In this document: positions 8,269 through 42,615 of the stretch, one piece after another
How the letters are laid out: each line of letters starts with the position of its first letter
Numbering within the stretch: position 1 is the stretch's first letter
Source: a virus
Length of the DNA stretch: 64,000 nt
Virus record (IMG/VR): IMGVR_UViG_3300009171_000001
Coordinates: 1-64,000 of that record
Direction: 5' to 3' (one strand)
Notes under the pieces: generated by a model
What the model was told of the DNA's origin: nothing
Seen by the model: only the letters and a program-made list of their open reading frames with translations
Databases searched by the model: none
Position numbers and translations under genes: made by a program

Positions 8269-8633
8269 TATAATACAGCCGTCCTCAAAAATTCAGTGGC
8301 CTTGAAATTTGGATTTTTCAAAAATGCTCTAATTTCATAAGCCCCATCATTTGCTTTTGGGTCATCCAAATATACTACATCATCCAAAGTACCTAACATC
8401 AACACCCCACCAATAGAAACATCCCTGTCAACATACACTTTAGCCCGTGAAATAAAAACATTATCTTGAGCATCTAACACCTCAACCATTTCATCATCCC
8501 ACCTACAATCTATCTCAACAGCATCACCATAAACAGTTTGTCCATAATCGTCCACAGCCTGCCCACCAGTTTCTTCAGAGGCTAATGGCCAATATACTGC
8601 CGTCTGTTTCAACATTCTGGTTAGGATAGACAT
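8268..8633 (-). CDS. Head closure / head-tail stopper-like protein
   Basis: The 121-residue protein has the beta-rich plan of SPP1 gp16 or similar head-closure proteins: an N-terminal LKQTAVYWPLAS strand, YGQTVYGDAVEIDCRWDD, an AKVYVDRDVSIGGVL strand and a final YEIRAFLKNPNFKATEFLRTAVL strand. It lies between the connector and gp10-like genes and overlaps the latter by one base, the usual order in siphovirus head-tail modules. It should seal the portal channel after packaging. The assignment rests mostly on order and overall pattern. Confidence 0.6.
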   Translation of the reverse strand: MSILTRMLKQTAVYWPLASEETGGQAVDDYGQTVYGDAVEIDCRWDDEMVEVLDAQDNVFISRAKVYVDRDVSIGGVLMLGTLDDVVYLDDPKANDGAYEIRAFLKNPNFKATEFLRTAVL

Positions 8634-8636
8634 AAT

Positions 8637-8942
8637 TTATCCTTTTGGACGTTTGTTCACTATCAATTCTTTAACACTTGCAAATCCAGCATCAACTTTC
8701 TTTTCTAACAAATTCAAAGTTGAATCAAATCTCTTCACTGTTTCTGTACAAGTATCTTTGAATTGAACGGTTCTTTGAAGATGTAAAACTTCTTCTCGAA
8801 TACCCGATTGATTTTCATTAACATCCTTACTATTACGTTTAGAAGCAAAAGCAAACGCCTCTTTCACCACAAGAATGGCGATAATACTTCCCACACCCAC
8901 TTGGGTTATAGAATCACTTTGAGCTAACAAATTATTTATCAT
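8637..8942 (-). CDS. Small membrane protein in the connector module, unknown function
   Basis: This 101-residue protein has one predicted membrane segment near residues 16-33 (VGVGSIIAILVVKEAFAF) followed by a charged tail with heptad-like leucines (VLHLQRTVQFKD, LNLLEKKVDAGF) that may form a coiled coil. It is placed between the head closure and connector genes with 3-nt gaps. Holin-like and XhlA-like proteins can have this form, but no decisive motif is present. I do not recognise it; a lysis role is only one possibility. Confidence 0.5.
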   Translation of the reverse strand: MINNLLAQSDSITQVGVGSIIAILVVKEAFAFASKRNSKDVNENQSGIREEVLHLQRTVQFKDTCTETVKRFDSTLNLLEKKVDAGFASVKELIVNKRPKG

Positions 8943-8945
8943 TAA

Positions 8946-9347
8946 TTATTCCTCTTCATCCTCTAAATCAGTACCTAACCAGGAGATACCCGCTGTAATT
9001 TTTGCCCCGTGTTTGGCTTGTACATTTAGTGCTGACAATCCACCAGCACTATCTAATCTCATCACCATTTGGCCGTAACGTGTGTTGTCAAAACCAAGTG
9101 CAATTACACTTTCAAAACTTTCACTAACCGGCCCACCTTTTTCTTGCGTTACCCGAACATCCCTTTGAGCATAAAAGTGGGCTGAAAGCCAAACAGCTAT
9201 CATATTTAATCGAGTGTCGTCATAATCGTCCGTACTACAATGCTCGGTGACCAATACTACTGCAGCAGCAATAAATGGGGCCAAATTTATGGTAGCATCT
9301 ACCTCAATAATTGCTTCCACATCATCAGATGTTACAGATATACTCAT
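8946..9347 (-). CDS. Head-tail connector (DUF4054-like), intact copy
   Basis: This 133-residue protein resembles DUF4054-type connector proteins: an N-terminal TSDDVEAIIEVDATINLAPFI segment, an LVTEHC segment, then LNMIAVWLSAHFYAQRD with the typical L-x-x-H helix. The C-terminus is acidic (DLEDEEE). Its start overlaps the stop of the upstream homing endonuclease by 4 nt (ATGA). Residues 1-50 have a diverged, truncated relative upstream of the endonuclease (10063-10221), matching at 32 of 50 positions. It should bind the portal or head completion ring. Confidence 0.65.
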   Translation of the reverse strand: MSISVTSDDVEAIIEVDATINLAPFIAAAVVLVTEHCSTDDYDDTRLNMIAVWLSAHFYAQRDVRVTQEKGGPVSESFESVIALGFDNTRYGQMVMRLDSAGGLSALNVQAKHGAKITAGISWLGTDLEDEEE

Positions 9348-10063
9348 GCTAATCTCCTCAAACGGTTATATCCATAAACCTTAAACTGTCTAATTCGCTT
9401 TCGTCTTTTTTCACACCATACTTTTGCTGCTAACCATTTGGCTTTGTTTTGAGGATTATTCCAAGCAAATTCAGGTTTCAATTCTATCAAATCCACTTTA
9501 CCATTTGCATAATAAACGAGAAGGTCTGGTATATAAACGTGAATGATTTTCTTCCATACATAAGAAATAGCAACAGGTTCTGTTTTATATTTCATAACCG
9601 TAGATTGCTTTTCTAAAAGCATATACCAATCCCGTTCAAGGTGGGAACGATAATGTAGCTTCTTTTGATTCTTTTGAGAATAAAACCAACCACCCCTTCC
9701 TCGTCCATTATTACTATGTCCTGCCTGAATTCGTTTTATTGCAACTTTCCTCAATTTTGCTTTTTGTTTCTCAGTAAGATGACCACCTTTATTTGCTCCA
9801 GGATGTCCCATAAGCGAATTACTAATTTTCCTTTTCGTCTCATTTGAAGTTATGTGTCCTTTGAGACCTTCACTAATACGCCTCCGCTCATCTACAGATG
9901 GTATTCTTCCAAATGTTTTACTTGGGGGCATAGTTTGAAATCGAATTTTCTGGGCCTTACTCATTTTTCTTTTCTGTTCTGGAGTTCTCTTTTTACCCCG
10001 TAAAGAGGCTGCCCTTCTTGCTATCCAAATATCAGTATGATGTTTTATATGATTGTTGGCCAT
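9344..10063 (-). CDS. Homing endonuclease with NUMOD3 repeats and TnsA-like nuclease domain
   Basis: This 239-residue basic protein begins with at least three NUMOD3-type DNA-binding repeats (LRGKKRTPEQKRKMSKAQ, SVDERRRISEGLKGH, SNETKRKISNSLMGH). Residues about 135-235 form a PD-(D/E)XK nuclease of TnsA type: SHLERDW supplies the first Glu, YIPDLLV the Asp and LIELKPE the E-x-K pair. NUMOD3 proteins are typical of free-standing or intron-encoded homing endonucleases. The gene overlaps the preceding connector fragment (TAATG) and the following intact connector (ATGA), so it sits exactly within a duplicated connector locus. Function is confident; target specificity is inferred from place. Confidence 0.8.
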   Translation of the reverse strand: MANNHIKHHTDIWIARRAASLRGKKRTPEQKRKMSKAQKIRFQTMPPSKTFGRIPSVDERRRISEGLKGHITSNETKRKISNSLMGHPGANKGGHLTEKQKAKLRKVAIKRIQAGHSNNGRGRGGWFYSQKNQKKLHYRSHLERDWYMLLEKQSTVMKYKTEPVAISYVWKKIIHVYIPDLLVYYANGKVDLIELKPEFAWNNPQNKAKWLAAKVWCEKRRKRIRQFKVYGYNRLRRLA

Positions 10064-10221
10064 TAAAATCCTATTAATTCCAGCCGCGTAGCATCATAAT
10101 CATCTGTACTACAATGTTCGGTAACTAAAGCATTAGCTACTTCAATAAATGGAGTTAAACTTATTGTGGCATCCACCTCAATAATTCCACCCACAGCTTC
10201 AGCCGTTGTTCTCACTGCCAT
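10063..10221 (-). pseudogene. Truncated 5' copy of the connector gene
   Basis: A 52-codon frame starting with ATG at 10221 reads MAVRTTAEAVGGIIEVDATI and ends LELIGF at a TAA overlapping the endonuclease ATG. It matches the first 50 residues of the intact connector gene at 8946-9347 in 32 positions, with an identical LVTEHCSTDDYD core, and then breaks off where the endonuclease gene begins. It is too short to make the connector fold. It is either the disrupted native 5' end left by endonuclease insertion or flanking donor DNA carried along. Confidence 0.75.
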
Positions 10222-10233
10222 AATAATTTCCTC

Positions 10234-10863
10234 TTACATTAACTTGCGGACAGATTCCCTCACACCCGATGTTTCCTGTGATTCCTGGAGAATCGCTTTT
10301 GCTACCACCACATCAGTTACAACCGGATTGGCCAACAGAGTATTTACAGAATGAACAAGGCCGGAGCTCACTTTCTTTGCCCGCTTGGCAAGAATAGTCC
10401 CTATTGTTCCAGCAAGAATACCCCCCAGCGTTATCAAAGGGCCAACGGGAGCTGGTATCAGGGGACCAACCTGAGAAGCCGCTTGACCATACAGAATTAA
10501 CTCATCGGCATAGGTTACGTCTTTGTCTTTAAGTTCAAGGAGTTTGGCTTGCCATATATTTATCTGGGCATCAATCTGTGCCTTCTTCTCGGCCACAACC
10601 GTAGCCTGAGCTATAGCATTAGTAAGTAATGCTTGAATCTTCTCCCGTTCAGGCAAGGCCAAATTTGGGTCTGCCAATACCGTCTGCATTTCAATCATCC
10701 CTTGCCGCAAGGTTGTCAACTGCTCAGTCATCGCGGTCGAGGCTTCGTTAGCTTTTGCCACAATACCTTCAAGCAAGTCCAACCGTTCTCTACTGTCTGT
10801 ACCACAACCACCAATAAGCAGAGAAATCATAAGTATAACCATCATTAAATAACAACGCCGCAT
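10234..10863 (-). CDS. Phage-encoded lipoprotein with coiled coil
   Basis: The 209-residue product has a signal peptide of about 20 residues ending in a lipobox (LLIGGC), so Cys20 is probably lipid-modified. Residues about 28-120 are Q/A/E-rich and helical, likely a coiled coil. A glycine-rich hydrophobic segment (GPLITLGGILAGTIGTILA, near 140-160) could insert into a membrane and is followed by basic KRAKK. It overlaps its upstream neighbour by 19 nt. Candidate roles are spanin-like lysis factor or superinfection-exclusion lipoprotein; nothing in the sequence decides between them. Confidence 0.55.
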   Translation of the reverse strand: MRRCYLMMVILMISLLIGGCGTDSRERLDLLEGIVAKANEASTAMTEQLTTLRQGMIEMQTVLADPNLALPEREKIQALLTNAIAQATVVAEKKAQIDAQINIWQAKLLELKDKDVTYADELILYGQAASQVGPLIPAPVGPLITLGGILAGTIGTILAKRAKKVSSGLVHSVNTLLANPVVTDVVVAKAILQESQETSGVRESVRKLM

Positions 10864-11555
10864 AATTCACTTCCTTTCTGTGCATCTTTAGGTTCGTCAT
10901 CTTTTACAACCCTTTGATGCTTAGCCCAAAATTCTTTTGTTCCAATTTTTGGAAATACAATCAAACTACTATCATCTGTCACATTTACTACTGAACAATT
11001 TGGAAACTTTTCCTTCAAATCCCTATTAACATAACCAAACGCTACCAACATTCTGGCATATACATCTTTAGATGGTTTGTCTATCTGAAAATTGTGCCAG
11101 TTAGGATTATTATTATCGTCAAGGTGCATATCAAAACCAAGCAGATATATGTTATTTGCACCGAACAATAAAGCCAAATTGATAGCCGTGGCACCAGAGC
11201 TGGCATTATATCCTAAAGCATCACGATGAAGGCCACGTGTTTGTCGTTGCATAATCTTAATCCACGGTTCATTGCATCCTATCAACTGGTTGCAATTAGT
11301 AACAACAGGACCAGTAAATTTGGCAAGCTCTTCATATACACCAACTCTTGGCTTTTTACCATCGTATAGAAATTTGCGGTCAACAAAAACACATACCTTG
11401 CAAATCTCAGGCCCCAAACGAAAGGCGTTGTTGCAACCTATCGTATTCTCATCCCGTAACAATTCCCAATCAAAGTTACGAAGTGATGGGCCACCACCTA
11501 TGATAAAAGCATCTTGACCTTGCCAAATTGGCTCTGGATTCCACCAATTGACCAT
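10845..11555 (-). CDS. MptE/DUF115-like enzyme of unknown role
   Basis: This 236-residue protein carries motifs of the DUF115/6-hydroxymethylpterin pyrophosphokinase MptE-like superfamily: IIGGGPSLRNFDWELL near the N-terminus, GCNNAFRLG, a GYNASSGATAINLALLFGA segment around residue 117 and IYLLGFDMHLD with an NPNWHNF tail. Members occur in many phages and polysaccharide loci, but their substrates are uncertain. It lies between the capsid and lipoprotein genes, an accessory position. It may act on the host surface or a nucleotide-linked substrate; this is inference. Starts with ATG at 11555, just after the preceding gene. Confidence 0.65.
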   Translation of the reverse strand: MVNWWNPEPIWQGQDAFIIGGGPSLRNFDWELLRDENTIGCNNAFRLGPEICKVCVFVDRKFLYDGKKPRVGVYEELAKFTGPVVTNCNQLIGCNEPWIKIMQRQTRGLHRDALGYNASSGATAINLALLFGANNIYLLGFDMHLDDNNNPNWHNFQIDKPSKDVYARMLVAFGYVNRDLKEKFPNCSVVNVTDDSSLIVFPKIGTKEFWAKHQRVVKDDEPKDAQKGSELCGVVI

Positions 11556-20036: not shown

Positions 20037-21545
20037 TCAAGAGTACTTTTTGCTTGTCAATCCGTGAAAAATCCCTTTTGATGTCTGCCATCCACCACCA
20101 GCCCTTACAACTGGTTTGCTCAAAAAATTAAAAGCACCACTACTGGCATCTACTTGATCTTTATACTTGCTACGTGGAAAATGCCTCAATTCATCCAGAT
20201 ATTCTTTATTCCATCCCCCTGGCACCATATAAACATTTCCAATGTTGACTTGGGATGCATATGGTTCAGCCCTCATTTCTTTATTACCAGAGGATTGACC
20301 CACTTTATCTACACTTACAGAATACCCAGCCAGATTACGCACAGTCCATACCGCACTATCTTTCCCACCACTCCCAGGCTCTTGCTCCACCCTTATCCTC
20401 ACATCCTTCCCATCCAATTCAGCCACATCCCTAATCTTTCTCTCCCTCTCATCCACCCCCCACTGTCCTTTCACCACATTCAACACCCAATACCTCCCCT
20501 CTTTATCCTTCCCCATCTCCACCCCCGCCGTCCTGGCCCCACCATCTTTAGTACCCGCCTTATCCCAATAACGTAATCTCGTCACCCATTGTATTTTATC
20601 CGGTATTTCAGACAGGACAATCATATTTGTCTTGAACATCATACCACCTTCAGGTATAGGTTTTTGTAATACCTGGCCGGCATAACCATATTCACCCAAC
20701 TGTCTCCACAAATCCTCCAAATACCCCCTGGGCATCTTAACAGGGTCAAGTAATCCATCTTTGTAATATTTTTTCAATTCAGGTGGTTTTACATCATCTG
20801 TTATTTCACCAGGCAAACATATATGTTGGATATCATCCCCACCCATATCCAACAAAGTTTGTGTAGGGTCATCCTGATGCAACCGCTGCATAATGAGGAT
20901 GATAGGGGCAATACGTTTGTAAGTAGCCACCTTTCGTGTAGGCAACGTCCTGGTCATCCATCGGTTCACCGTTTTCAAATCAGCTTCAGATGCACTGCGT
21001 TCAGGGTCAATAGGGTCATCCACAAGCAAAAAATGCCCGTGCATGCCTTGAACCTGCCCCCCCACACCCACCGTGTACCGGCTGCCACCCAATGTATTTT
21101 TGAAATAGCTTTTGACATGCTGATCCTGCCTCAACACAATTTCAGGGTAACAAGCCCTATATTTCTCACTCCATATCAAATCCCTACTTTTCAAAGCCAA
21201 ATCCAACCCTACACTGTCAGTATAACTGGCGGTAATAAATTGTGCACTGGGCATCCGTGTCCACACCCACGCCGGATACATAATACTACAGATGGTACTT
21301 TTAGTTGTGCCAGGGGGGATATTCACTACAATATCACCTTTTTTGGGCAACCTGTTAAAAACCCGCTCAGCAGCAGTTTGTAATACCCCACACAGATATG
21401 ATATATGCCAGTTGTCAATAAATGGCTCACACAGAAAACTTTCAAAGAATTCCACCACAAACCGATAAAAACTACTCCGGCATATACTACCCACCACAGT
21501 GGCTTCATCCAATTCTAATTCATCCAATACACTCATGTCTATCAT
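20037..21545 (-). CDS. terL: Terminase large subunit
   Basis: The 502-residue ATPase-nuclease drives DNA packaging. Walker A is NIPPGTTKST near residue 89, Walker B is GHFLLVDDPIDPE near 172, and a coupling motif follows (IILIMQRLHQDDPT). The nuclease domain starts near residue 315 with LRYWDKAGTKDGGARTAGVEM, giving the first conserved Asp, and continues through VRIRVEQEPGSGGKDS. An internal ATG at 21536 (MSVLDELELD) may be the true start, because nothing like a ribosome binding site was resolved before 21545. Confidence 0.9.
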   Translation of the reverse strand: MIDMSVLDELELDEATVVGSICRSSFYRFVVEFFESFLCEPFIDNWHISYLCGVLQTAAERVFNRLPKKGDIVVNIPPGTTKSTICSIMYPAWVWTRMPSAQFITASYTDSVGLDLALKSRDLIWSEKYRACYPEIVLRQDQHVKSYFKNTLGGSRYTVGVGGQVQGMHGHFLLVDDPIDPERSASEADLKTVNRWMTRTLPTRKVATYKRIAPIILIMQRLHQDDPTQTLLDMGGDDIQHICLPGEITDDVKPPELKKYYKDGLLDPVKMPRGYLEDLWRQLGEYGYAGQVLQKPIPEGGMMFKTNMIVLSEIPDKIQWVTRLRYWDKAGTKDGGARTAGVEMGKDKEGRYWVLNVVKGQWGVDERERKIRDVAELDGKDVRIRVEQEPGSGGKDSAVWTVRNLAGYSVSVDKVGQSSGNKEMRAEPYASQVNIGNVYMVPGGWNKEYLDELRHFPRSKYKDQVDASSGAFNFLSKPVVRAGGGWQTSKGIFHGLTSKKYS

Positions 21546-22140
21546 ATGACAAATCCCAAAAATTTATACGGGATAAAAAATACACCCGATAGAAAATATA
21601 ATAACGGGGTGGGGTAAGCTAAGCTACTGGAAAATATAGGGGATAATAAATGAACGATATATAGTCTATAAAGTAAATCCCAAAAATTGGATGAATATGA
21701 AAAACCCACCCCGATGAATAATAAATAGGGGGTATAGGGGGATAATATCTGGTTGAAGGGGAGTATCAGGAATATCAAGAATAGTACGATATATAGTCTA
21801 TAAAGTAAATCCCAAAAATTTGGTAATAACCGTGGGATGGCCATTACCCCCCCTTTTACCCCCTCCCCCCCTCTATAGCGGGGTCGTCTAAAAATAAATA
21901 TATACTTTATATCCATAATACATCCTATATATACTATCTATACATCTATACTATATATCCTATAATAGTATATACTTTATATCCTGAATATACTTTGTAT
22001 ATACTATATATCTATACTATACTTATATCCTATTCTGGTATATACTATCTATACTTTTCTTATCCATAATACATCCTATATATACTATATATCTATACTA
22101 TACTTATATCCTATTTTGGTATATACTATATATCCTATTT
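21546..22140. repeat. AT-rich direct-repeat region between terminase genes
   Basis: Two direct-repeat families are visible. A 36-bp unit beginning CGATATATAGTCTATAAAG occurs at about 21656 and 21789, with a partial third copy (AAATCCCAAAAATTT) at 21550. A second family occurs at about 21911-22130: blocks starting ATCCATAATACATCCTATAT (21911, 22062) and ATATCTATACTATACTTATA (about 22008 and 22087). A 124-codon minus frame crosses the first family but is made of the repeats and is not accepted as a gene. Place beside the terminase genes suggests a packaging site or replication origin; this is inference. Confidence 0.5.
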
Positions 22141-22926
22141 CTATTCATTACCTGCACCCCCCTCATTATCTATTTTATCGGGTAATAGGGCCACGGGATT
22201 AGGGGATGGTATATTATCTATAACCGTACTATCGATGGCCCGCCGTCTAATAGTTTCTAATATCTTCTCGCGTACATCCATCGGTAACTCGTCTATAACT
22301 ATCCTTCCTTTTATAGTAGTATTTTTATCTATCTCTATTTTCTCCCCGTACCCTCTATCCTTACACTTTGTTTTTAGCCCGTATAGAATCGCCGTTGTAT
22401 CCATCGCTTTTACTAATTTATAAAATTGACTCTCTATAAAATCCTTCTTTATATCCTCTATTTCTTTTACTAACTTACCGAAATCGCCATCGTTATTTAA
22501 CCACTGGTAATACAACCCTCTACTTATCCCGACTTTCCGGCAAGCCTTCGCTATAGAGAAATTATTAGATATTAGGGCGTAGATAAAAAGATATTGATTA
22601 GCTGCTTTCCCCTTATTAGCCAAAAGGCTTTCTATTTTCCCCGTATCCGTCCCCTCTTTATCATACTGATTTATCTTTTCCCAAACGGATTTTAGGTTAT
22701 CGGGTAGCCGATTATAAACATAGTCTTTTATGCTTAGGTTGTTATTAGTTTTTTTCCGTATAGACTTAGCTGTCTTTATAGCCATTCTAATCTTTTTATA
22801 CTTTTTTCTCCATGTTATCAAGGTTGGCTTAGTCACGCCTATAGTTTTGGCTACGGTATTTAAGGTGGCACCATCCTTCACCAAATCGTATATCGTAAAA
22901 ACTAAACTATCGTTCCATTTTGTCAT
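22141..22926 (-). CDS. terS: Terminase small subunit-like protein
   Basis: The 261-residue protein has an N-terminal helix-turn-helix (TLNTVAKTIGVTKPTLITWRK, about residues 20-40) and a second one in the middle (NFSIAKACRKVGISRGLYYQWL, about 122-143), followed by a helical region and AILYGLKTKCKDRGYGEK, a common small-terminase motif. It would bind the packaging site and feed DNA to the large subunit. It is the first gene of the minus block. Its codon choice (many ATA and CGx codons in an AT-rich gene) differs somewhat from the structural genes downstream. Confidence 0.7.
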   Translation of the reverse strand: MTKWNDSLVFTIYDLVKDGATLNTVAKTIGVTKPTLITWRKKYKKIRMAIKTAKSIRKKTNNNLSIKDYVYNRLPDNLKSVWEKINQYDKEGTDTGKIESLLANKGKAANQYLFIYALISNNFSIAKACRKVGISRGLYYQWLNNDGDFGKLVKEIEDIKKDFIESQFYKLVKAMDTTAILYGLKTKCKDRGYGEKIEIDKNTTIKGRIVIDELPMDVREKILETIRRRAIDSTVIDNIPSPNPVALLPDKIDNEGGAGNE

Positions 22927-29692: not shown

Positions 29693-30246
29693 AAAACATA
29701 TCAAAAAATTGTAAACAGGAGGGGACAATAATCTCCAAAGCACTCGAACCTTTGGCAGTAGAAGCAAGGAAATATAAGACAGTAGAGGAATTTGAGGAAA
29801 AATTATGGGAGATAAAACAATGGGGCGAACAAAGACATAGAACGTCCGGTTTTCCTCAATTAAGCGCAATGCCTGGAGAAGAGGAACGATACAATAAGTG
29901 GTATGAAAATTTATCACCAGAAAAGAAGGCATTAGAAGATTTATACGTTTCTTATAGAAACGTTCCCAATAGGGGAATTACCATATCAGATTTTTACAAG
30001 CAAGCCAAGCAAGCCCCTGCGCCAGAGGGGATAATTAAAGTAGGTGATACAATCACAAATGGAATGGTACGTGGCAAGGTTATTGGTGAAGGCTCTATCA
30101 AATTTGGCAAAAGTCCATTGCCTGCCTACAAAGTCAAAATCCTCACCGGCCATGAAAAAGGTACAATTTCATTGATGATTAAAACCGACTCAAAGTTAGT
30201 ATCAAATGATGCCTTTGTACAGCAGTACGGCAGAAAGAAGAAATGA
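29689..30246 (+). CDS. Hypothetical protein, 185 residues
   Basis: Start ATG 29689 follows AAAGGAGAACAAAA. The N-terminal 120 residues are helical and charged (KYKTVEEFEEKLWEIKQWGE, RYNKWYENLSPEKKALEDLY) and the C-terminal 60 form a beta-rich module (IIKVGDTITNGMVRGKVIGE, YKVKILTGHEKGTISLMIK) reminiscent of small SH3-like barrels. It overlaps the truncated helicase fragment by 4 nt. Not recognised. Confidence 0.55.
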   Translation: MKNISKNCKQEGTIISKALEPLAVEARKYKTVEEFEEKLWEIKQWGEQRHRTSGFPQLSAMPGEEERYNKWYENLSPEKKALEDLYVSYRNVPNRGITISDFYKQAKQAPAPEGIIKVGDTITNGMVRGKVIGEGSIKFGKSPLPAYKVKILTGHEKGTISLMIKTDSKLVSNDAFVQQYGRKKK

Positions 30247-30359
30247 CCAAACTATATCCATTTCAAAAACGTGGTGTCCGCCAAATAATCCGATTTGGTG
30301 GACGTGTGTTGTTGATAAAATATAAAATATCTCTTGACCTTTTCCTATACCCATTATAG
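30243..30359 (+). pseudogene. Truncated 5' copy of the SNF2 helicase gene
   Basis: A 38-codon frame starts MTKLYPFQKRGVRQIIRFGG and matches the start of the intact helicase (MTKLFSYQKESVRQIIRFKG) at 17 of the first 24 positions; it then diverges (LLIKYKIS) just before the helicase Walker A motif and stops. It overlaps the upstream gene by ATGA, as an active gene would. The break lies about 75 nt before the endonuclease gene's ATG-bearing leader. It mirrors the truncated connector copy at 10063-10221. Confidence 0.75.
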
Positions 30360-30408
30360 TATTGGGTTTTGGTAAAAAGAACATTCATTATTAGAAAGGA
30401 ACAAAAAG

Positions 30409-30939
30409 ATGCCAAGAGGTATTTATCCAAGGACAAAAAATCAATTGAAAAATGCGAAGAAAAATCTTGCAATGGGTCGTACTCCCAAAGCACGAGAAAA
30501 AGCAAGACAAAAAATGATTGAGAAGGCAAAAAATATAGAATGGAGAAAGTTAGTATCAGAACAAACTAAAAAGGCCATGCATCAACCAAACATACGAAAA
30601 AACCACCTGAGAGGACTGTTCAAAGCAAGAGCAAAATATGGTATCAATTTTAAGGGAGGTAATGGACAAAAGCCAACCCCTATTATAGAATTAGCTAACA
30701 AATTATTTAGTCAATGTGGATTTGAAAGAGAATATGTAATAGAAACAAAAATAATAAAACAAAACTTTGAAAATATACCAGATTCATATAAAGCTGATTT
30801 TTGTAATCCCAAACAAAAGTTGATAATAGAAATGGATGGACCTTGCCATCGGCCCAGGAAACAAAGAAAACTGGATAGAAAAAAGACAAAAGTATTAAAA
30901 GCTCTTGGTTGGCGGGTTGTGAGGTTGAAACATCAATGA
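30409..30939 (+). CDS. Homing endonuclease-like protein, VSR/DUF559-type nuclease
   Basis: The 176-residue basic protein has an N-terminal region rich in NUMOD3-like basic repeats (RTPKAREKARQKMIEKAKN, SEQTKKAMHQPNIRKNHLRG) and a C-terminal VSR/DUF559-like nuclease: SYKADFCNPKQKLIIEMDG supplies Asp and Glu, then H-R-P-R-K and KTKVLKALGWRVVRLKHQ. It overlaps the intact helicase start by 4 nt and lies after a truncated helicase 5' end. The arrangement argues for homing into the helicase gene. Function is confident, activity unknown. Confidence 0.75.
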   Translation: MPRGIYPRTKNQLKNAKKNLAMGRTPKAREKARQKMIEKAKNIEWRKLVSEQTKKAMHQPNIRKNHLRGLFKARAKYGINFKGGNGQKPTPIIELANKLFSQCGFEREYVIETKIIKQNFENIPDSYKADFCNPKQKLIIEMDGPCHRPRKQRKLDRKKTKVLKALGWRVVRLKHQ

Positions 30940-32288
30940 CAAAATTATTTTCGTACCAAAAAGAATCTGTAAGACAGATCATACGGTTCAAAGGAAGAAC
31001 TTTACTTGCGTTAGAAATGGGTTTGGGTAAGACTTTAGTGGCTCTGTCTTATCTTCGACAACAAACGGGGACAATCCCTGCGATGGTTGTCTGTCCTGCA
31101 TCGGCTAAGTGGGTATGGAAAAACGAAATCAAGAAACATACCCACTTCAAAAGTCAGATTCTAAATGGCAAATCGCCCAGGCCCATCCAATGCAAAGACA
31201 TAACCATTATAAACTATGATATTTTACCACAATGGAAAGATGTTTTGAAAGGGATGAATCATCCTACAATGATATTAGATGAGTGCCAATACATCAAATC
31301 CTGGCAGGCCAAGCGCACTAAGGCTGTGATAAGTCTGGGCCGAAACAAACCTCACATCCTTGCGTTAAGTGGTACACCTTTGACTAATAGGCCAAAGGAA
31401 TTATATAATGTATTACATTTGTTGTTGCCTGAAAGGTTCACCTCATTTGTCCCATATGCTTGGCGGTTTTGTAACAGACGGATAACACCTTGGGGATGGG
31501 ATGATAATGGGGCAAGCCATTTGGATGAGTTGCATAATATACTCAAAGAGACATGTATGATTAGGCGTTGCAAAAAACAAGTGTTGTCTGAATTACCGGA
31601 CAAACAACGCAGTGTAATTTTGTTGCCTGTTAATCTGACCGAATATCGTAGGGCTGAAGATGATTTTATCAACTGGTTAGCTGAGCAGGATGTCGCTAAG
31701 GCTGAAAAAGCTAAGCAAGCAGAGGCTTTGGTCCAATTGGGTTATTTGAAACGATTGGCCGCTAAGTTGAAGATGAAAGCAGTGATGGAATGGATGGATG
31801 ACTATTTTGAATCAACTGACGCTAAGTTGGTTGTTTTTGCATATCATAAATCCATAATCCAAACTTTGCATCAACAATACAAAAAATTCAGTGTGGTATT
31901 AGATGGGAGGACATCTCAGGCGGGAAGGATACAAAGCATCCAAAAATTTCAAGAGGATAAACAAACCCGTTTGTTTATAGGTCAGTTAATTGCAGCAGGC
32001 ACAGCTATTACCCTGACCGCAGCATCGACAGCCGCGTTTGTAGAATTAGATTGGGTGCCAAGCAACCATATACAAGCAGAGGACAGGTTGCATCGTATAG
32101 GTCAAAAAGCCCATACCCAAATATATTATATAGTTAGTAAAGATACTATTGAAGAAGATTTGTGTAATATAATTCAAAAGAAAGCAAAAACGATTACATC
32201 TGTATTAGATGGTCGAAAAAGAAAAGATGAATTAAATATCTTTGATAAATTGAAGAACATTATTTATGAAAGGAAAAACAATGGATAA
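30936..32288 (+). CDS. SNF2-type DNA helicase/translocase
   Basis: The ATG at 30936 is chosen because it matches the start of the truncated relative upstream and forms ATGA with the endonuclease stop. The 450-residue protein has motif I EMGLGKTLVALSYL near residue 32, motif II ILDECQYIKSWQAK near 112, motif III LALSGTPLTNRPKELYN near 150 and a C-terminal helicase lobe with TRLFIGQLIAAGTAITLTAA and EDRLHRIGQKAHTQIYYIV, the typical motifs V-VI of SNF2 enzymes. It probably acts in replication, repair or recombination. Confidence 0.9.
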   Translation: MTKLFSYQKESVRQIIRFKGRTLLALEMGLGKTLVALSYLRQQTGTIPAMVVCPASAKWVWKNEIKKHTHFKSQILNGKSPRPIQCKDITIINYDILPQWKDVLKGMNHPTMILDECQYIKSWQAKRTKAVISLGRNKPHILALSGTPLTNRPKELYNVLHLLLPERFTSFVPYAWRFCNRRITPWGWDDNGASHLDELHNILKETCMIRRCKKQVLSELPDKQRSVILLPVNLTEYRRAEDDFINWLAEQDVAKAEKAKQAEALVQLGYLKRLAAKLKMKAVMEWMDDYFESTDAKLVVFAYHKSIIQTLHQQYKKFSVVLDGRTSQAGRIQSIQKFQEDKQTRLFIGQLIAAGTAITLTAASTAAFVELDWVPSNHIQAEDRLHRIGQKAHTQIYYIVSKDTIEEDLCNIIQKKAKTITSVLDGRKRKDELNIFDKLKNIIYERKNNG

Positions 32289-32460: not shown

Positions 32461-32507
32461 GCTCCGGAGCGGTCTTTGTTTTTGCCGAGGCTAAAAAGGC
32501 GTCCAAG

Positions 32508-33377
32508 ATGAAATTCATCGATATACTTGAAGAAAATAATATCCCTACAGCACCACAGGGACATCATCATCGGACACAAGGATGGATACAATTTGATTGT
32601 CCATTTTGTGGGCGGGATAGTGGACGATTCCATATGGGATATAATCTGGGTGGGGGGTTTGCTAATTGCTGGCGGTGTGGCCCCCATTCACTTTATCAAA
32701 TCCTGCAGGAATTGACAGGGTTACACCACAACAAAATAAAATCCATAATCTCACAATTGGATGAAGTTGTAATGGAGGATGAGGAGAAAATACATCACAC
32801 CCTCATCCTCCCCTCCCACTTAGGCCCACTTGGTACAACCCATATAAGATATATCAACAAACGCCATCTACATCATCTTGACTTGGAACGATTATGGCAA
32901 GTGCAGGGCATAGGGTTTTTTGGCAGATTGAAATGGCGGTTGTTCATACCTATAATCTACAAAGGACGGATGGTCAGTTGGACTACACGTACCATTGGTG
33001 AAACAGGATTGAGATATATTAGTGCTCAACCTGGACAAGAATTAATGCCACACAAGACCTTGTTGTATGGACAAGATTATGTAAGGCATACCGTCATTGT
33101 TGTGGAAGGGCCGATGGATGTTTGGGCTATTGGACCTGGGGCTGTGGCTACATTTGGGACGGCTTATACCAAAAGTCAGGTGGCTAAGTTGATAGAAATT
33201 CCACGCCGTATTGTTTGTTATGACAATGAACCAGAGGCTCAAAAACAGGCCCAAAAACTCTGCAACGAATTGGGGGGATTTGGGGGTGAAACTATCAATG
33301 TTGTTTTGAATAGCAAAGACCCAGGTGAAGCAAAACCGGCTGAATTAAATCTATTAAGAACATTTTTAGAAAGATGA
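32508..33377 (+). CDS. DNA primase (zinc-binding and TOPRIM domains)
   Basis: The 289-residue protein begins with a zinc domain (FDCPFCGRDSGRFHMGYNLGGGFANCWRCG, two Cys pairs near residues 27-58) and has a TOPRIM-like C-terminal half: VIVVEGPMDVWAIGPGAVATFGT near 196 supplies the conserved Glu, and RRIVCYDNEPEAQKQAQKL near 234 the Asp-containing motif. It should prime lagging-strand synthesis with the DnaB-like helicase encoded downstream. No fused helicase domain is present, unlike T7 gp4. Confidence 0.85.
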   Translation: MKFIDILEENNIPTAPQGHHHRTQGWIQFDCPFCGRDSGRFHMGYNLGGGFANCWRCGPHSLYQILQELTGLHHNKIKSIISQLDEVVMEDEEKIHHTLILPSHLGPLGTTHIRYINKRHLHHLDLERLWQVQGIGFFGRLKWRLFIPIIYKGRMVSWTTRTIGETGLRYISAQPGQELMPHKTLLYGQDYVRHTVIVVEGPMDVWAIGPGAVATFGTAYTKSQVAKLIEIPRRIVCYDNEPEAQKQAQKLCNELGGFGGETINVVLNSKDPGEAKPAELNLLRTFLER

Positions 33378-37768: not shown

Positions 37769-37788
37769 ACAGCACAGCGGGGATTTTG

Positions 37789-38844
37789 ATGAAACGATAC
37801 CAAAGTGCAATTGGGGTAAGGGGTGATTGTTTATATTGCCCCTTGCCTTTGTCTATTGATACCTATTGGAATTGTGAACCTGATTGTTATCATTGTTATA
37901 GCCGCCGCCTTAATCGGATATGGGGGATGGATTTGCGGCCTGCTGACCCTGATGCTATCGCCCACAAATTACATAATGGATTGAAATGCAAAAATCCACG
38001 TAGTAGTTTGGCTTGGGCTTTATATCATAAGAAAACCTTGCGGGTGGGAAATCGTACAGACCCATATCAACCAGCTGAATTGAAACATCAAGTTACTCAT
38101 CAGGTATTAAATATCTTGATTGATTTGAAATGGACGTTTGTTATTCAAACGCGATTTACAAATAATATGTCTAATGATGAAGAGGCCATACTCAAAGCAA
38201 AGGATAAACAACTCATTACTTTGCTGCCCATTATTAGTCCAGGGGGGGAGTGGGATAGGACTGTTTTGGAAAAAGGGGCAACACCATCAATTCATAGCCG
38301 ATTACAAATCATCCGTCGATATATCAAAAAAGGTGTGCCTGTAGGTGTGGGGGGTGAACCTTTCATTCCTGGTTTGCATACGCCTAAAATGTTTGAAGAT
38401 ACTTTGAAGTCATTAAAATCAGTAGGGGTAAAAAGTTATAATACATATAATTTGCATTTCAACGACCATGTAGCCAAACAACTGGTTGGTATTGGATTAG
38501 ATATTGAAAGGATTTGGCATTATAATCAGGACAAACAATGGCGTCCAATTTTGCATAGGTTGTGCGAAATGGCTGATAGGCTGGGGATAGTATTGGGTTG
38601 CCCGGACTTTGTCAACGTACCGTACAGTTATACAACAAAATCTAACACTTGCTGCGGTATATCGGTAACAAACCCCAGCCGATTTAACACAGACACTTGG
38701 CGAAGGTTGTTGATGGATGGGAAAAAACCAGGATGGGTGTTGAAAAAGACGTGGGAGGGGATTGGGAATAAGGAGATGGGATGGAAAATCTTGTTTGGCA
38801 AACCGTGTGAATTTTATACGATGAAAGATGCAGGGATTATATGA
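37789..38844 (+). CDS. Radical SAM protein, SPL-like (first)
   Basis: Start at ATG 37789. The 351-residue protein has a radical SAM cysteine triad CEPDCYHC near residue 30, inside GDCLYCPLPLSIDTYWN, plus two extra Cys (DCLYC) just before it. The rest follows COG1533/SPL-like proteins: LRVGNRTDPYQPAE, LKWTFVIQTRFTNN, HSRLQIIRRYIKKGVPVGVGGEPFIPG. Spore photoproduct lyase relatives act on nucleic acid or peptides. It overlaps the next gene by 4 nt. In context, it may take part in modification of phage DNA; no direct proof. Confidence 0.75.
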   Translation: MKRYQSAIGVRGDCLYCPLPLSIDTYWNCEPDCYHCYSRRLNRIWGMDLRPADPDAIAHKLHNGLKCKNPRSSLAWALYHKKTLRVGNRTDPYQPAELKHQVTHQVLNILIDLKWTFVIQTRFTNNMSNDEEAILKAKDKQLITLLPIISPGGEWDRTVLEKGATPSIHSRLQIIRRYIKKGVPVGVGGEPFIPGLHTPKMFEDTLKSLKSVGVKSYNTYNLHFNDHVAKQLVGIGLDIERIWHYNQDKQWRPILHRLCEMADRLGIVLGCPDFVNVPYSYTTKSNTCCGISVTNPSRFNTDTWRRLLMDGKKPGWVLKKTWEGIGNKEMGWKILFGKPCEFYTMKDAGII

Positions 38845-41187: not shown

Positions 41188-42615
41188 ATGAATTACTACG
41201 AGTTGAGAAAAGCTGTGGCTCAAGTCATCCCGCATAGTCACCGGATTACGGGGGAGAGGATGAGAGTACGGGCGGTGAAAGAAAAGGGACGCAAAAGTGG
41301 ATATGCTGAGTACAAATTGTCTCAACAGGAGTGGGTAAAACAAGAGCGGTTGTTAAATGTAGATGAAGTGAGTAGTTTTATTGAAGTTAGTTGCAGGGCA
41401 CAGGCTTGCCCAATGCCATTAAACATCGACATTTGGGATGGATTGATTTGTCCCTACAATTGTTGTTATTGTTTTGCTAATAGTTTTAGGGCATCTTTGT
41501 ACACAGCATTTTTTGATAATAGCAAAACTATGGGTATGCGGCATTGTAACACTGCTAAGTACAAAAAGGATTTGGACAAACTATTCCTTCAATATCGTGG
41601 TAAAAATTCTCATGACATAAACAATCCTGTTGCTAAGGCTATAGCTATAGGAATACCTATACGATTTGGCATCCGGTTTGAGGATTTTTTGAAGCAAGAG
41701 GAGAAAAGCGGGGTGAGTTTGGAAATGTTGAAATACCTTGCTAAGTGCAAATATCCTTTGATGGTCAATACCAAGTCTGTATTGATAGGTCATGAAGAAT
41801 ATGTTCATGCATTAAGTCATAACAAAGGCAAAACGGCAGTACATATCACTTTAATAAGTAGTAACAATGGTTTGTTGAAGGCTTTAGAACCTGGGGCACC
41901 ATCCTATGAGGATAGAATAGGGGCTATGAAAAATTTGGTGTCTGCTGGGGTGAGGGTAGTAGCCAGGATTGAACCGTGGATGCCTTTTGTGAATGACGAC
42001 CCTGACCATACCGAAAAATATATGCAAGATTTGAAAGATATTGGGGTAAAACATTTGACCTTTGATACATACTCCTACAGCGCCAACAATCCAGGTATTG
42101 CCCAGGCTTTCCGAAATCTCAATATGGATTGGGATAGGATTTTCTCCATGGGTTGTGAAAGTCAAGGTTTTGGCAGCATCCTGTTAGGTTACTATATGAA
42201 ATTGTGGCAAGACAAAGGATTTCATTGTTCAACTTTCGATATGGGTAATATGCCCACTAATTCTCAATCTATCTGTTGTGAAGTGGGGGATTTGTTTGAA
42301 ACTACGGGTGGCTTTAATTACGGTTGTACTGTGATGGCTGCCAGATATATCATTGGTAAAAAAGGTTCATCGGTAAGTTGGGGGGAATTTTGTGCCCATG
42401 TAAATAAACATGGTGGATTTTTGTCCAAAGCCTTAAAAGATGAAGTATTATTGTTATGGGACTTTTTGGGTAAAGATGCTTATAGTCATGGTTGGAGTGC
42501 GGGGATGGAAATAGATGGGTGTGATGAAAATGGACATATGGTGTGGAAATATAATTCCGATTTAGATTTTCGTCAAGATTTGTTAAAAGGAGTAGGCATT
42601 GAGTTACAAAGCTAA
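41188..42615 (+). CDS. Radical SAM protein, SPL-like (second)
   Basis: The 475-residue protein has the triad CPYNCCYC near residue 90, preceded by CRAQACPMPLNIDIWDGLI, closely resembling the first radical SAM protein's CPLPLSIDTYWN. A long central part has FGIRFEDFLKQEEKSG and YPLMVNTKSVLIGHEEYV, and RVVARIEPWMPFVNDDPD matches the SPL-like core strand pattern; the C-terminal 150 residues are extra, with Cys-containing SQSICCEVGDLFETTGGFNYGC that may bind a second cluster. The two radical SAM proteins are likely paralogues with different roles. Confidence 0.75.
   Translation: MNYYELRKAVAQVIPHSHRITGERMRVRAVKEKGRKSGYAEYKLSQQEWVKQERLLNVDEVSSFIEVSCRAQACPMPLNIDIWDGLICPYNCCYCFANSFRASLYTAFFDNSKTMGMRHCNTAKYKKDLDKLFLQYRGKNSHDINNPVAKAIAIGIPIRFGIRFEDFLKQEEKSGVSLEMLKYLAKCKYPLMVNTKSVLIGHEEYVHALSHNKGKTAVHITLISSNNGLLKALEPGAPSYEDRIGAMKNLVSAGVRVVARIEPWMPFVNDDPDHTEKYMQDLKDIGVKHLTFDTYSYSANNPGIAQAFRNLNMDWDRIFSMGCESQGFGSILLGYYMKLWQDKGFHCSTFDMGNMPTNSQSICCEVGDLFETTGGFNYGCTVMAARYIIGKKGSSVSWGEFCAHVNKHGGFLSKALKDEVLLLWDFLGKDAYSHGWSAGMEIDGCDENGHMVWKYNSDLDFRQDLLKGVGIELQS

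What the first reader, a model, noticed from the sequence alone, without database searches (positions are those of the whole stretch)
8946..10221. Homing endonuclease flanked by a broken and an intact connector gene
A 52-codon, diverged 5' fragment of the connector gene is followed by a NUMOD3/TnsA-type endonuclease, then the intact connector, all overlapping by 1-4 nt. The endonuclease seems to have entered the 5' part of the gene while bringing a replacement 5' end, so the gene stays functional. A comparable strategy with replaced gene ends is known, as I recall, for mobile endonuclease genes in fungal mitochondrial atp6, at the 3' end; a 5' version in phage would be new to me.
Basis: partly seen in the sequence, partly recalled or inferred. 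Interest (0 to 1): 0.75.

Follow-up and report, generated by a model that had tools for sequence, protein, structure and literature searches.

The report
Phage homing endonuclease replacing gene starts
A selfish DNA-cutting gene appears to have inserted itself into the start of a phage gene and brought a spare, altered copy of that start so the gene can still work, and the same phage carries a second, unrelated cutter that did the same to its helicase gene, where an uninvaded sister phage shows the 'before' state.

Summary
On the minus strand, a 52-codon 5' stub of a head-tail-connector-like gene (10221-10063) is followed by a NUMOD3/TnsA-type nuclease (10063-9344) and a complete connector (9347-8946), overlapping by 1 and 4 nt.

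Fifty-two endonuclease-free relatives have one copy only. Forty-seven of them resemble the stub more than the start of the complete copy. The complete copy has lost two invariant residues, one (E51) exactly at the junction.

Beyond the given coordinates I found an independent second case in the same phage: helicase stub (30243-30359), EDxHD-type endonuclease (30409-30939), complete SNF2 helicase (30936-32288). A 97%-identical endonuclease-free sister (L082) settles its history. The stub equals the native start (71/72 nt). The window's complete helicase differs from native at 41 of 105 nt in codons 1-35, then at 22 of 1,245, switching at codon 35/36.

Best reading: a splicing-free homing endonuclease carrying a foreign, probably cleavage-resistant 5' end, so the invaded gene keeps working. 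Gene-end replacement is known at 3' ends of fungal mitochondrial genes; 'home-and-rescue' gene drives are a synthetic analogue. I found no report of a 5' or phage version. Cleavage and homing are inferred, and no further cases turned up in 2.77 Mb screened.

The parts
10063..10221 (-). Orphaned native 5' stub of the connector gene; codons 1-50 (10072-10221) look native, then the reading runs into the inserted cassette and stops (TAA shared with the endonuclease ATG)
   Evidence: keeps every residue conserved in >=85% of 52 relatives; 82% identical to native L064 over 50 aa
9344..10063 (-). Endonuclease 1: repeated NUMOD3 DNA-binding motifs plus TnsA/T7-endonuclease-I-like PD-(D/E)XK nuclease domain
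   Evidence: Pfam, invariant E143/D180/E194/K196, PDB profile hits to TnsA and T7 endonuclease I
9192..9347 (-). Foreign replacement 5' end (codons 1-52) of the intact connector; lacks invariant R4 and E51
8946..9191 (-). Presumed native 3' part of the connector gene (codons 53-133)
   Evidence: Inferred; conserved WLxAHFY motif intact. No near-identical empty allele to prove the switch
9354..9359 (-). Shine-Dalgarno-like GAGGAG inside the end of endonuclease 1, serving the replacement start codon
   Evidence: Sequence
30243..30359 (+). Second case: orphaned native 5' stub of an SNF2-type helicase gene; codons 1-24 (30243-30314) identical to native L082 except 1 nt
30315..30408 (+). Cassette leader between stub and endonuclease 2, with a weak promoter-like site (30334-30362) and an SD-like AGAAAGGA
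   Evidence: consensus match only
30409..30939 (+). Endonuclease 2: EDxHD (Vsr-like, DUF559) homing-endonuclease type
   Evidence: Pfam DUF559 E 1.4e-10; invariant E141, D143, H147, D156 with intein-nested relatives; PDB 3hrl and, weakly, 3r3p 'mobile intron protein'
30936..31040 (+). Foreign replacement 5' end (codons 1-35) of the intact helicase, carrying D26L next to the Walker A motif
   Evidence: 41 of 105 nt differ from native L082; breakpoint at nt 104, Fisher P 1e-33
31041..32288 (+). Native 3' part of the helicase gene (codons 36-450)
   Evidence: 98.2% identical to L082, dS 0.08, dN 0.002

Best explanation
Each locus is a homing endonuclease gene that uses gene-end replacement instead of splicing. 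Inferred steps: the endonuclease lies directly 5' of its target gene in a donor phage and is translationally coupled to it. It cuts endonuclease-free alleles in the best conserved motif near the 5' end (connector around codon 51; helicase around codons 25-35, at Walker A). Repair leaves the native 5' stub on the left and installs the endonuclease plus the donor's own diverged 5' end, fused in frame to the native 3' part. Shown steps: in the helicase case the stub equals the native start, the downstream start is foreign, the rest is native, and the native sequence across the insertion point is gone. The rebuilt gene is complete, and the residue at the junction is changed from a near-invariant one, as expected if the new start is immune to cutting. 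The stub and the native 3' part can then act as homology arms for further homing.
For: Helicase: 97%-identical empty allele L082; stub 71/72 nt identical to native; complete copy 41/105 nt different from native before the breakpoint and 22/1245 after; flanks 96.6-97.4% identical. Connector: only single copies in relatives; 47/52 relatives closer to the stub; all >=85%-conserved residues kept in the stub, while R4 and E51 (52/52 each) are lost in the intact copy. Both: near-invariant residue at the junction changed (E51A; D26L, where 16 of 17 related helicases and L082 have D); synonymous sites near saturation between native and replacement start (pS 0.68 and 0.83; codon choice as different as random draws), so the replacement is not a recent local copy; two unrelated nuclease families with complete active-site motifs; ATGA overlap with the rebuilt gene in both.
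Against: No cleavage or homing measured. No donor of either replacement end found. For the connector the switch at codon 52 is not statistically visible in conservation scores alone (z -0.64), and the two starts share the unusual stretch HCSTDDYD. The helicase empty allele rests on one 5-kb contig. No further case in 78 EDxHD endonuclease loci or in 2.77 Mb of phage DNA screened, so the unit has not been seen at the same site in a second phage.
Confidence: 0.76

Rival explanations
1. One-off ectopic repair rather than an established mobile cassette: an ordinary free-standing endonuclease upstream of a diverged homologue cut the gene, one end was repaired by homology inside the target gene, the other was joined illegitimately, leaving the stub as debris. 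The unit never moves again as a unit.
For: The left junction in the helicase case is non-homologous sequence; the same unit was not found in any other phage; free-standing phage endonucleases next to their targets are common (PMC2988022).
Against: The same layout arose twice in one phage with unrelated nucleases, both with exact ATGA coupling and a changed junction residue, which fits a recurrent strategy better than two accidents.
Confidence: 0.14
2. Simple tandem duplication of the 5' end, followed by insertion of an endonuclease between the copies and divergence of the downstream copy.
For: In the connector the two copies are each other's closest relatives (63%; best other relative of the intact start 57%).
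Against: Relatives with both copies and no endonuclease do not occur in the sample. In the helicase case the lineage dS is 0.08 but the replacement start is saturated, so it cannot have arisen by duplication since the split from L082. A stub left over from an old duplication would have decayed, yet it keeps all conserved residues.
Confidence: 0.05
3. A splicing element (group I/II intron, intein or trans-splicing split gene) with the stub as first exon.
For: The insertion sites are conserved motifs, as for introns and inteins; relatives of endonuclease 2 lie inside inteins.
Against: No Rfam match at E<=1 in the connector locus (not run for the helicase). The downstream genes are complete with their own start and SD. 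Splicing the connector stub to the 3' part would not restore the invariant E51-R52. Stop codons separate all parts.
Confidence: 0.02
4. Assembly chimera joining two phage variants.
For: Metagenomic record; a diverse population is plausible.
Against: The connector arrangement is present at 100% identity in a separate IMG/VR record, although possibly from the same sample. Tight 1-nt and 4-nt gene overlaps and intact reading frames at two unlinked sites are not expected from misjoins.
Confidence: 0.03

Closest known systems
Fungal mitochondrial mobile-ORF gene hybrids (Allomyces atp6; Glomus atp6, atp9, cox2, nad3; Rhizopus atp9; Mortierella cox2), PMC3630166
   Same: Endonuclease ORF between a native gene end and a foreign, diverged replacement end; native end matches close relatives (91-98% nt), inserted end does not (64-81%); the gene stays complete as a hybrid
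   Different: Those replace the 3' end and use LAGLIDADG/GIY-YIG enzymes in mitochondria; here the 5' end, in a phage, with PD-(D/E)XK and EDxHD-type nucleases; the foreign end lies downstream of the endonuclease and the native stub upstream
T4-type free-standing homing endonucleases (seg/mob genes), PMC2988022
   Same: Freestanding phage endonuclease next to the gene it presumably cuts, no splicing element
   Different: Those sit between genes, or split a gene into two cooperating pieces (mobE/nrdA of Aeh1, mobA/gene 60); no replacement end that restores a single complete gene
EDxHD (I-Bth0305I-like) homing endonucleases, reviewed in PMC3943268
   Same: Endonuclease 2 has the E-D-x-H-D residues
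   Different: The founding member lies in a group I intron (my recollection); here freestanding with gene-end replacement
Synthetic home-and-rescue drive HomeR (PMC7968924)
   Same: Works alike: cuts an essential gene and carries a re-coded, uncuttable end that rescues it
   Different: Engineered Cas9 drive with a re-coded 3' end in Drosophila; only a functional analogy

Membership tests
Homing endonuclease gene | Intact nuclease active site with DNA-binding modules | tested here: met
   Endo 1 NUMOD3 + PD-(D/E)XK residues; endo 2 EDxHD residues; no DNA-binding module identified in endo 2
Homing endonuclease gene | Closely related empty allele at the same site | tested here: met
   Endo 2: L082, 97% identical, empty. 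Endo 1: only distant empty relatives
Homing endonuclease gene | Site-specific cleavage of the empty allele and super-Mendelian inheritance | not testable with these tools
   Needs purified enzyme and mixed infection
Gene-end-replacing mobile ORF (Allomyces atp6 type) | Native end displaced, matching close relatives | tested here: met
   Helicase stub 71/72 nt; connector stub closer in 47/52 relatives
Gene-end-replacing mobile ORF (Allomyces atp6 type) | Inserted end foreign and fused in frame to the native remainder | tested here: met
   Helicase breakpoint at nt 104, P 1e-33; connector only indirect
Gene-end-replacing mobile ORF (Allomyces atp6 type) | Replacement of the 3' end of the host gene | tested here: not met
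   Here the 5' end is replaced, so filed as a new variant, not a member
EDxHD homing endonuclease family (endo 2) | E-D-x-H-D catalytic residues in a Vsr-like domain | tested here: met
   Invariant E141 D143 H147 D156; PDB 3r3p matched weakly (E 0.055)
Group I/II intron | Conserved ribozyme core | tested here: not met
   No Rfam match up to E 1 in 8600-10900; helicase locus not searched
Split gene by endonuclease (mobE/nrdA type) | Two complementary gene pieces, neither complete | tested here: not met
   The downstream gene is complete in both cases

The most novel reading that the evidence does not exclude
Phages host a recurrent, so far undescribed class of splicing-free 'home-and-rescue' endonuclease genes that invade conserved motifs near gene starts and replace the 5' end with a foreign, cleavage-resistant one; unrelated nucleases have adopted it independently, twice in one genome.
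Probability: 0.55. Interest if true: 0.82.

Novelty: new variant of a known kind. Interest (0 to 1): 0.73.

Why it matters
Phage endonucleases are thought to survive either between genes or inside genes behind an intron or intein. This points to a third route: enter the coding sequence at its most conserved point and repay the damage with a foreign gene start. It would explain otherwise puzzling 'broken copy plus divergent copy' gene pairs, create chimeric genes in one step, and be a natural, phage counterpart of synthetic home-and-rescue gene drives, with a ready empty allele (L082) for a direct cleavage test.

Tried and rejected
Splicing: no Rfam hit in the connector locus, and splicing would not restore E51-R52. 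Tandem duplication: no relative with two copies, synonymous saturation. Selection for excess codon recoding: not supported, codon differences equal random draws. N- versus C-half conservation test for the connector: not significant (z -0.64). Close relatives of endonuclease 1: none in IMG/VR, only gp4-like head-completion and similar proteins in GenBank phages. Genome-contig scans empty. Donor of the helicase start: only about 50% identical phage helicases. Screen for the same layout in 78 EDxHD loci and in 245 loci, 2.77 Mb: only the two window cases have an endonuclease between; other hits are leader repeats or chance. PF08722 search of 45 relatives' records: no match, but nothing rang in controls either, so not proof of absence. 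Structure of endonuclease 1 alone: pLDDT 46, not usable. PDB fold search with the connector: nothing significant. The endo 2 tblastn hits labelled 'DNA helicase' looked at first like the same arrangement but are intein-nested genes in a different frame.

Full report
WHAT IS THERE. The window is most of a 73,759-base virus record. On the minus strand, three reading frames lie head to tail: a 52-codon stub (10221-10063), a 239-aa endonuclease (10063-9344) and a complete 133-aa gene (9347-8946), with overlaps of 1 and 4 nt. The stub and the start of the complete gene match over 123 nt at 73%. The endonuclease combines NUMOD3 repeats with a TnsA-like nuclease domain; E143, D180 and E194-x-K196 are invariant with distant relatives, and a profile finds TnsA and T7 endonuclease I among solved structures. 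The complete gene is probably a head-tail connector: weak DUF7370/DUF4054 matches, an all-helical model, distant predicted-structure matches to viral connector proteins, and its place after the major capsid gene.

CONNECTOR RELATIVES. Scans of IMG/VR gave dozens of relatives. Every one has a single complete gene; none has a second copy or fragment. In 52 distinct relatives R4 and E51 are invariant. The stub keeps R4 and every other residue conserved in at least 85% of relatives, and stops at codon 50, just before E51. The complete window copy has S4 and A51. Over codons 2-50, 47 of 52 relatives are closer to the stub, 3 to the complete copy and 2 tie; mean identities are 59% and 46%. Synonymous sites between stub and complete copy are close to saturated (pS 0.68) while pN is 0.23. 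An old duplicate left as debris would not have kept all conserved residues, so the stub looks like a recently orphaned native start. The weakness is that no near-identical empty allele was found, and a conservation test comparing the N and C halves of the complete copy is not significant (z -0.64). In this gene the ancestry switch is therefore indirect.

SECOND CASE IN THE SAME PHAGE. A self-comparison of all window reading frames found one other such pair. On the plus strand, a 38-codon stub (30243-30359) matches the start of an SNF2-type helicase (30936-32288), and a 176-aa endonuclease (30409-30939) lies between them and overlaps the helicase start by 4 nt. This endonuclease belongs to a different family, DUF559/Vsr-like with the EDxHD residues invariant, and its profile matches 3hrl and, weakly, the 'mobile intron protein' 3r3p (I take 3r3p to be I-Bth0305I from memory).

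THE EMPTY ALLELE. The IMG/VR contig L082 is 96.6-97.4% identical to the window on both sides and lacks the endonuclease and the duplication. Its helicase starts [37 protein letters not shown]. The window stub reads [24 protein letters not shown] and then departs: 71 of 72 nt are native. The window's complete helicase reads MTKLFSYQKESVRQIIRFKGRTLLALEMGLGKTLVAL and differs from native at 41 of the first 105 nt, but at only 22 of the remaining 1,245 (dS 0.08, dN 0.002). The best breakpoint is nt 104, Fisher P 1e-33. The native DNA of codons 25-35, the Walker A motif, no longer exists in the window phage.

WHAT THE TWO CASES SHARE. Both insertions hit the best conserved motif near the gene start. 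In both rebuilt genes the near-invariant residue at the junction is changed: E51A (52/52 relatives have E) and D26L (16 of 17 related helicases, and L082, have D). In both, the replacement start is near saturation at synonymous sites; codon differences equal random draws from the phage's codon usage (15/31 against 18.2 expected; 15/23 against 14.2). This points to old, foreign lineages and gives no sign of selection for extra recoding. In both, the endonuclease ends in an ATGA overlap with the rebuilt gene's start; the native helicase in L082 has the same kind of overlap with its own upstream gene.

MECHANISM. Shown: insertion in the coding sequence, displacement of the native start, a foreign start, a native remainder, and loss of the native sequence across the insertion point (helicase). 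Inferred: the endonuclease cuts that sequence; the donor had the endonuclease directly upstream of a diverged homologue; the rebuilt gene is immune; and stub plus native remainder serve as homology arms in later homing. The main rival is a one-sided, non-recurring repair event that leaves the same anatomy. I commit to the homing cassette at 0.76 and give the one-off version 0.14; gene-end replacement by an endonuclease, in one form or the other, is therefore about 0.9.

HOW COMMON. None of 78 other EDxHD endonuclease loci shows the layout, nor does a screen of 245 loci (2.77 Mb), in which the two window cases were recovered as positives. The 17 related helicases have no detected insertion. The layout is rare in what could be sampled, yet occurs twice here.

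COMPARISON WITH THE KNOWN. Fungal mitochondrial mobile ORFs replace gene 3' ends in the same way, with native ends 91-98% and inserted ends 64-81% identical to a relative (PMC3630166). A Tremella study speaks of 'N-terminal duplication' by introns, but its description, an insert whose 5' part resembles the following exon, reads to me as the 3' type (PMC7315562). In T4-like phages endonucleases sit between genes or split a gene into two cooperating pieces (PMC2988022). A recent survey of phage nucleases lists introns, inteins, split genes and free-standing genes (PMC10448857); the passages I searched name no gene-end replacement. The engineered HomeR drive carries a re-coded 3' end (PMC7968924). 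A 5' version, or any version in phage, was not found in the library; the library is open-access only, so absence there is weak evidence. Verdict: new variant of a known kind.

Noticed in passing
L083:2267-2899, L084:2342-2977, L085:2312-2905, L086:2189-2956, L087:2345-2971 (Pseudomonas phage MR14, Corynebacterium phage phi673, Vibrio phages CP-T1, K391, 159E43-1b): EDxHD endonuclease genes lie in the +1 frame inside inteins of SF2 helicase genes and appear unannotated; over the same DNA the endonuclease frame is more conserved than the intein/helicase frame (37-60% against 20-38%).
   Followed up: partly
window 24024, 24443, 24864, 25881, 26200, 28404 (+ strand): A roughly 40-90-nt sequence is repeated at several spots of the 23.7-28.4 kb region and also in L082; it may be a dispersed promoter or leader.
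   Followed up: no
window 21640-22420: Short repeats around the space between the large terminase gene (20037-21545) and the gene at 22141-22926; a packaging site is possible.
   Followed up: no
window 37786-38844 and 41188-42615: Two distant paralogues (24% identity) that look like radical-SAM proteins by their cysteine motifs, in one phage.
   Followed up: no
window 10845-11555 against L003, L005, L006: The gene after the connector in relatives (IGGG.SL motif protein) lies before the connector in the window phage, with an extra lipoprotein-like gene (10234-10863) between.
   Followed up: no
L082:3380-4114 against window 32463-32508: The sister phage has about 730 nt with three small ORFs downstream of the helicase that the window phage lacks.
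   Followed up: no
L177 and L178 (related helicase loci): One in-frame TGA lies within the helicase match reported by the genome search.
   Followed up: no
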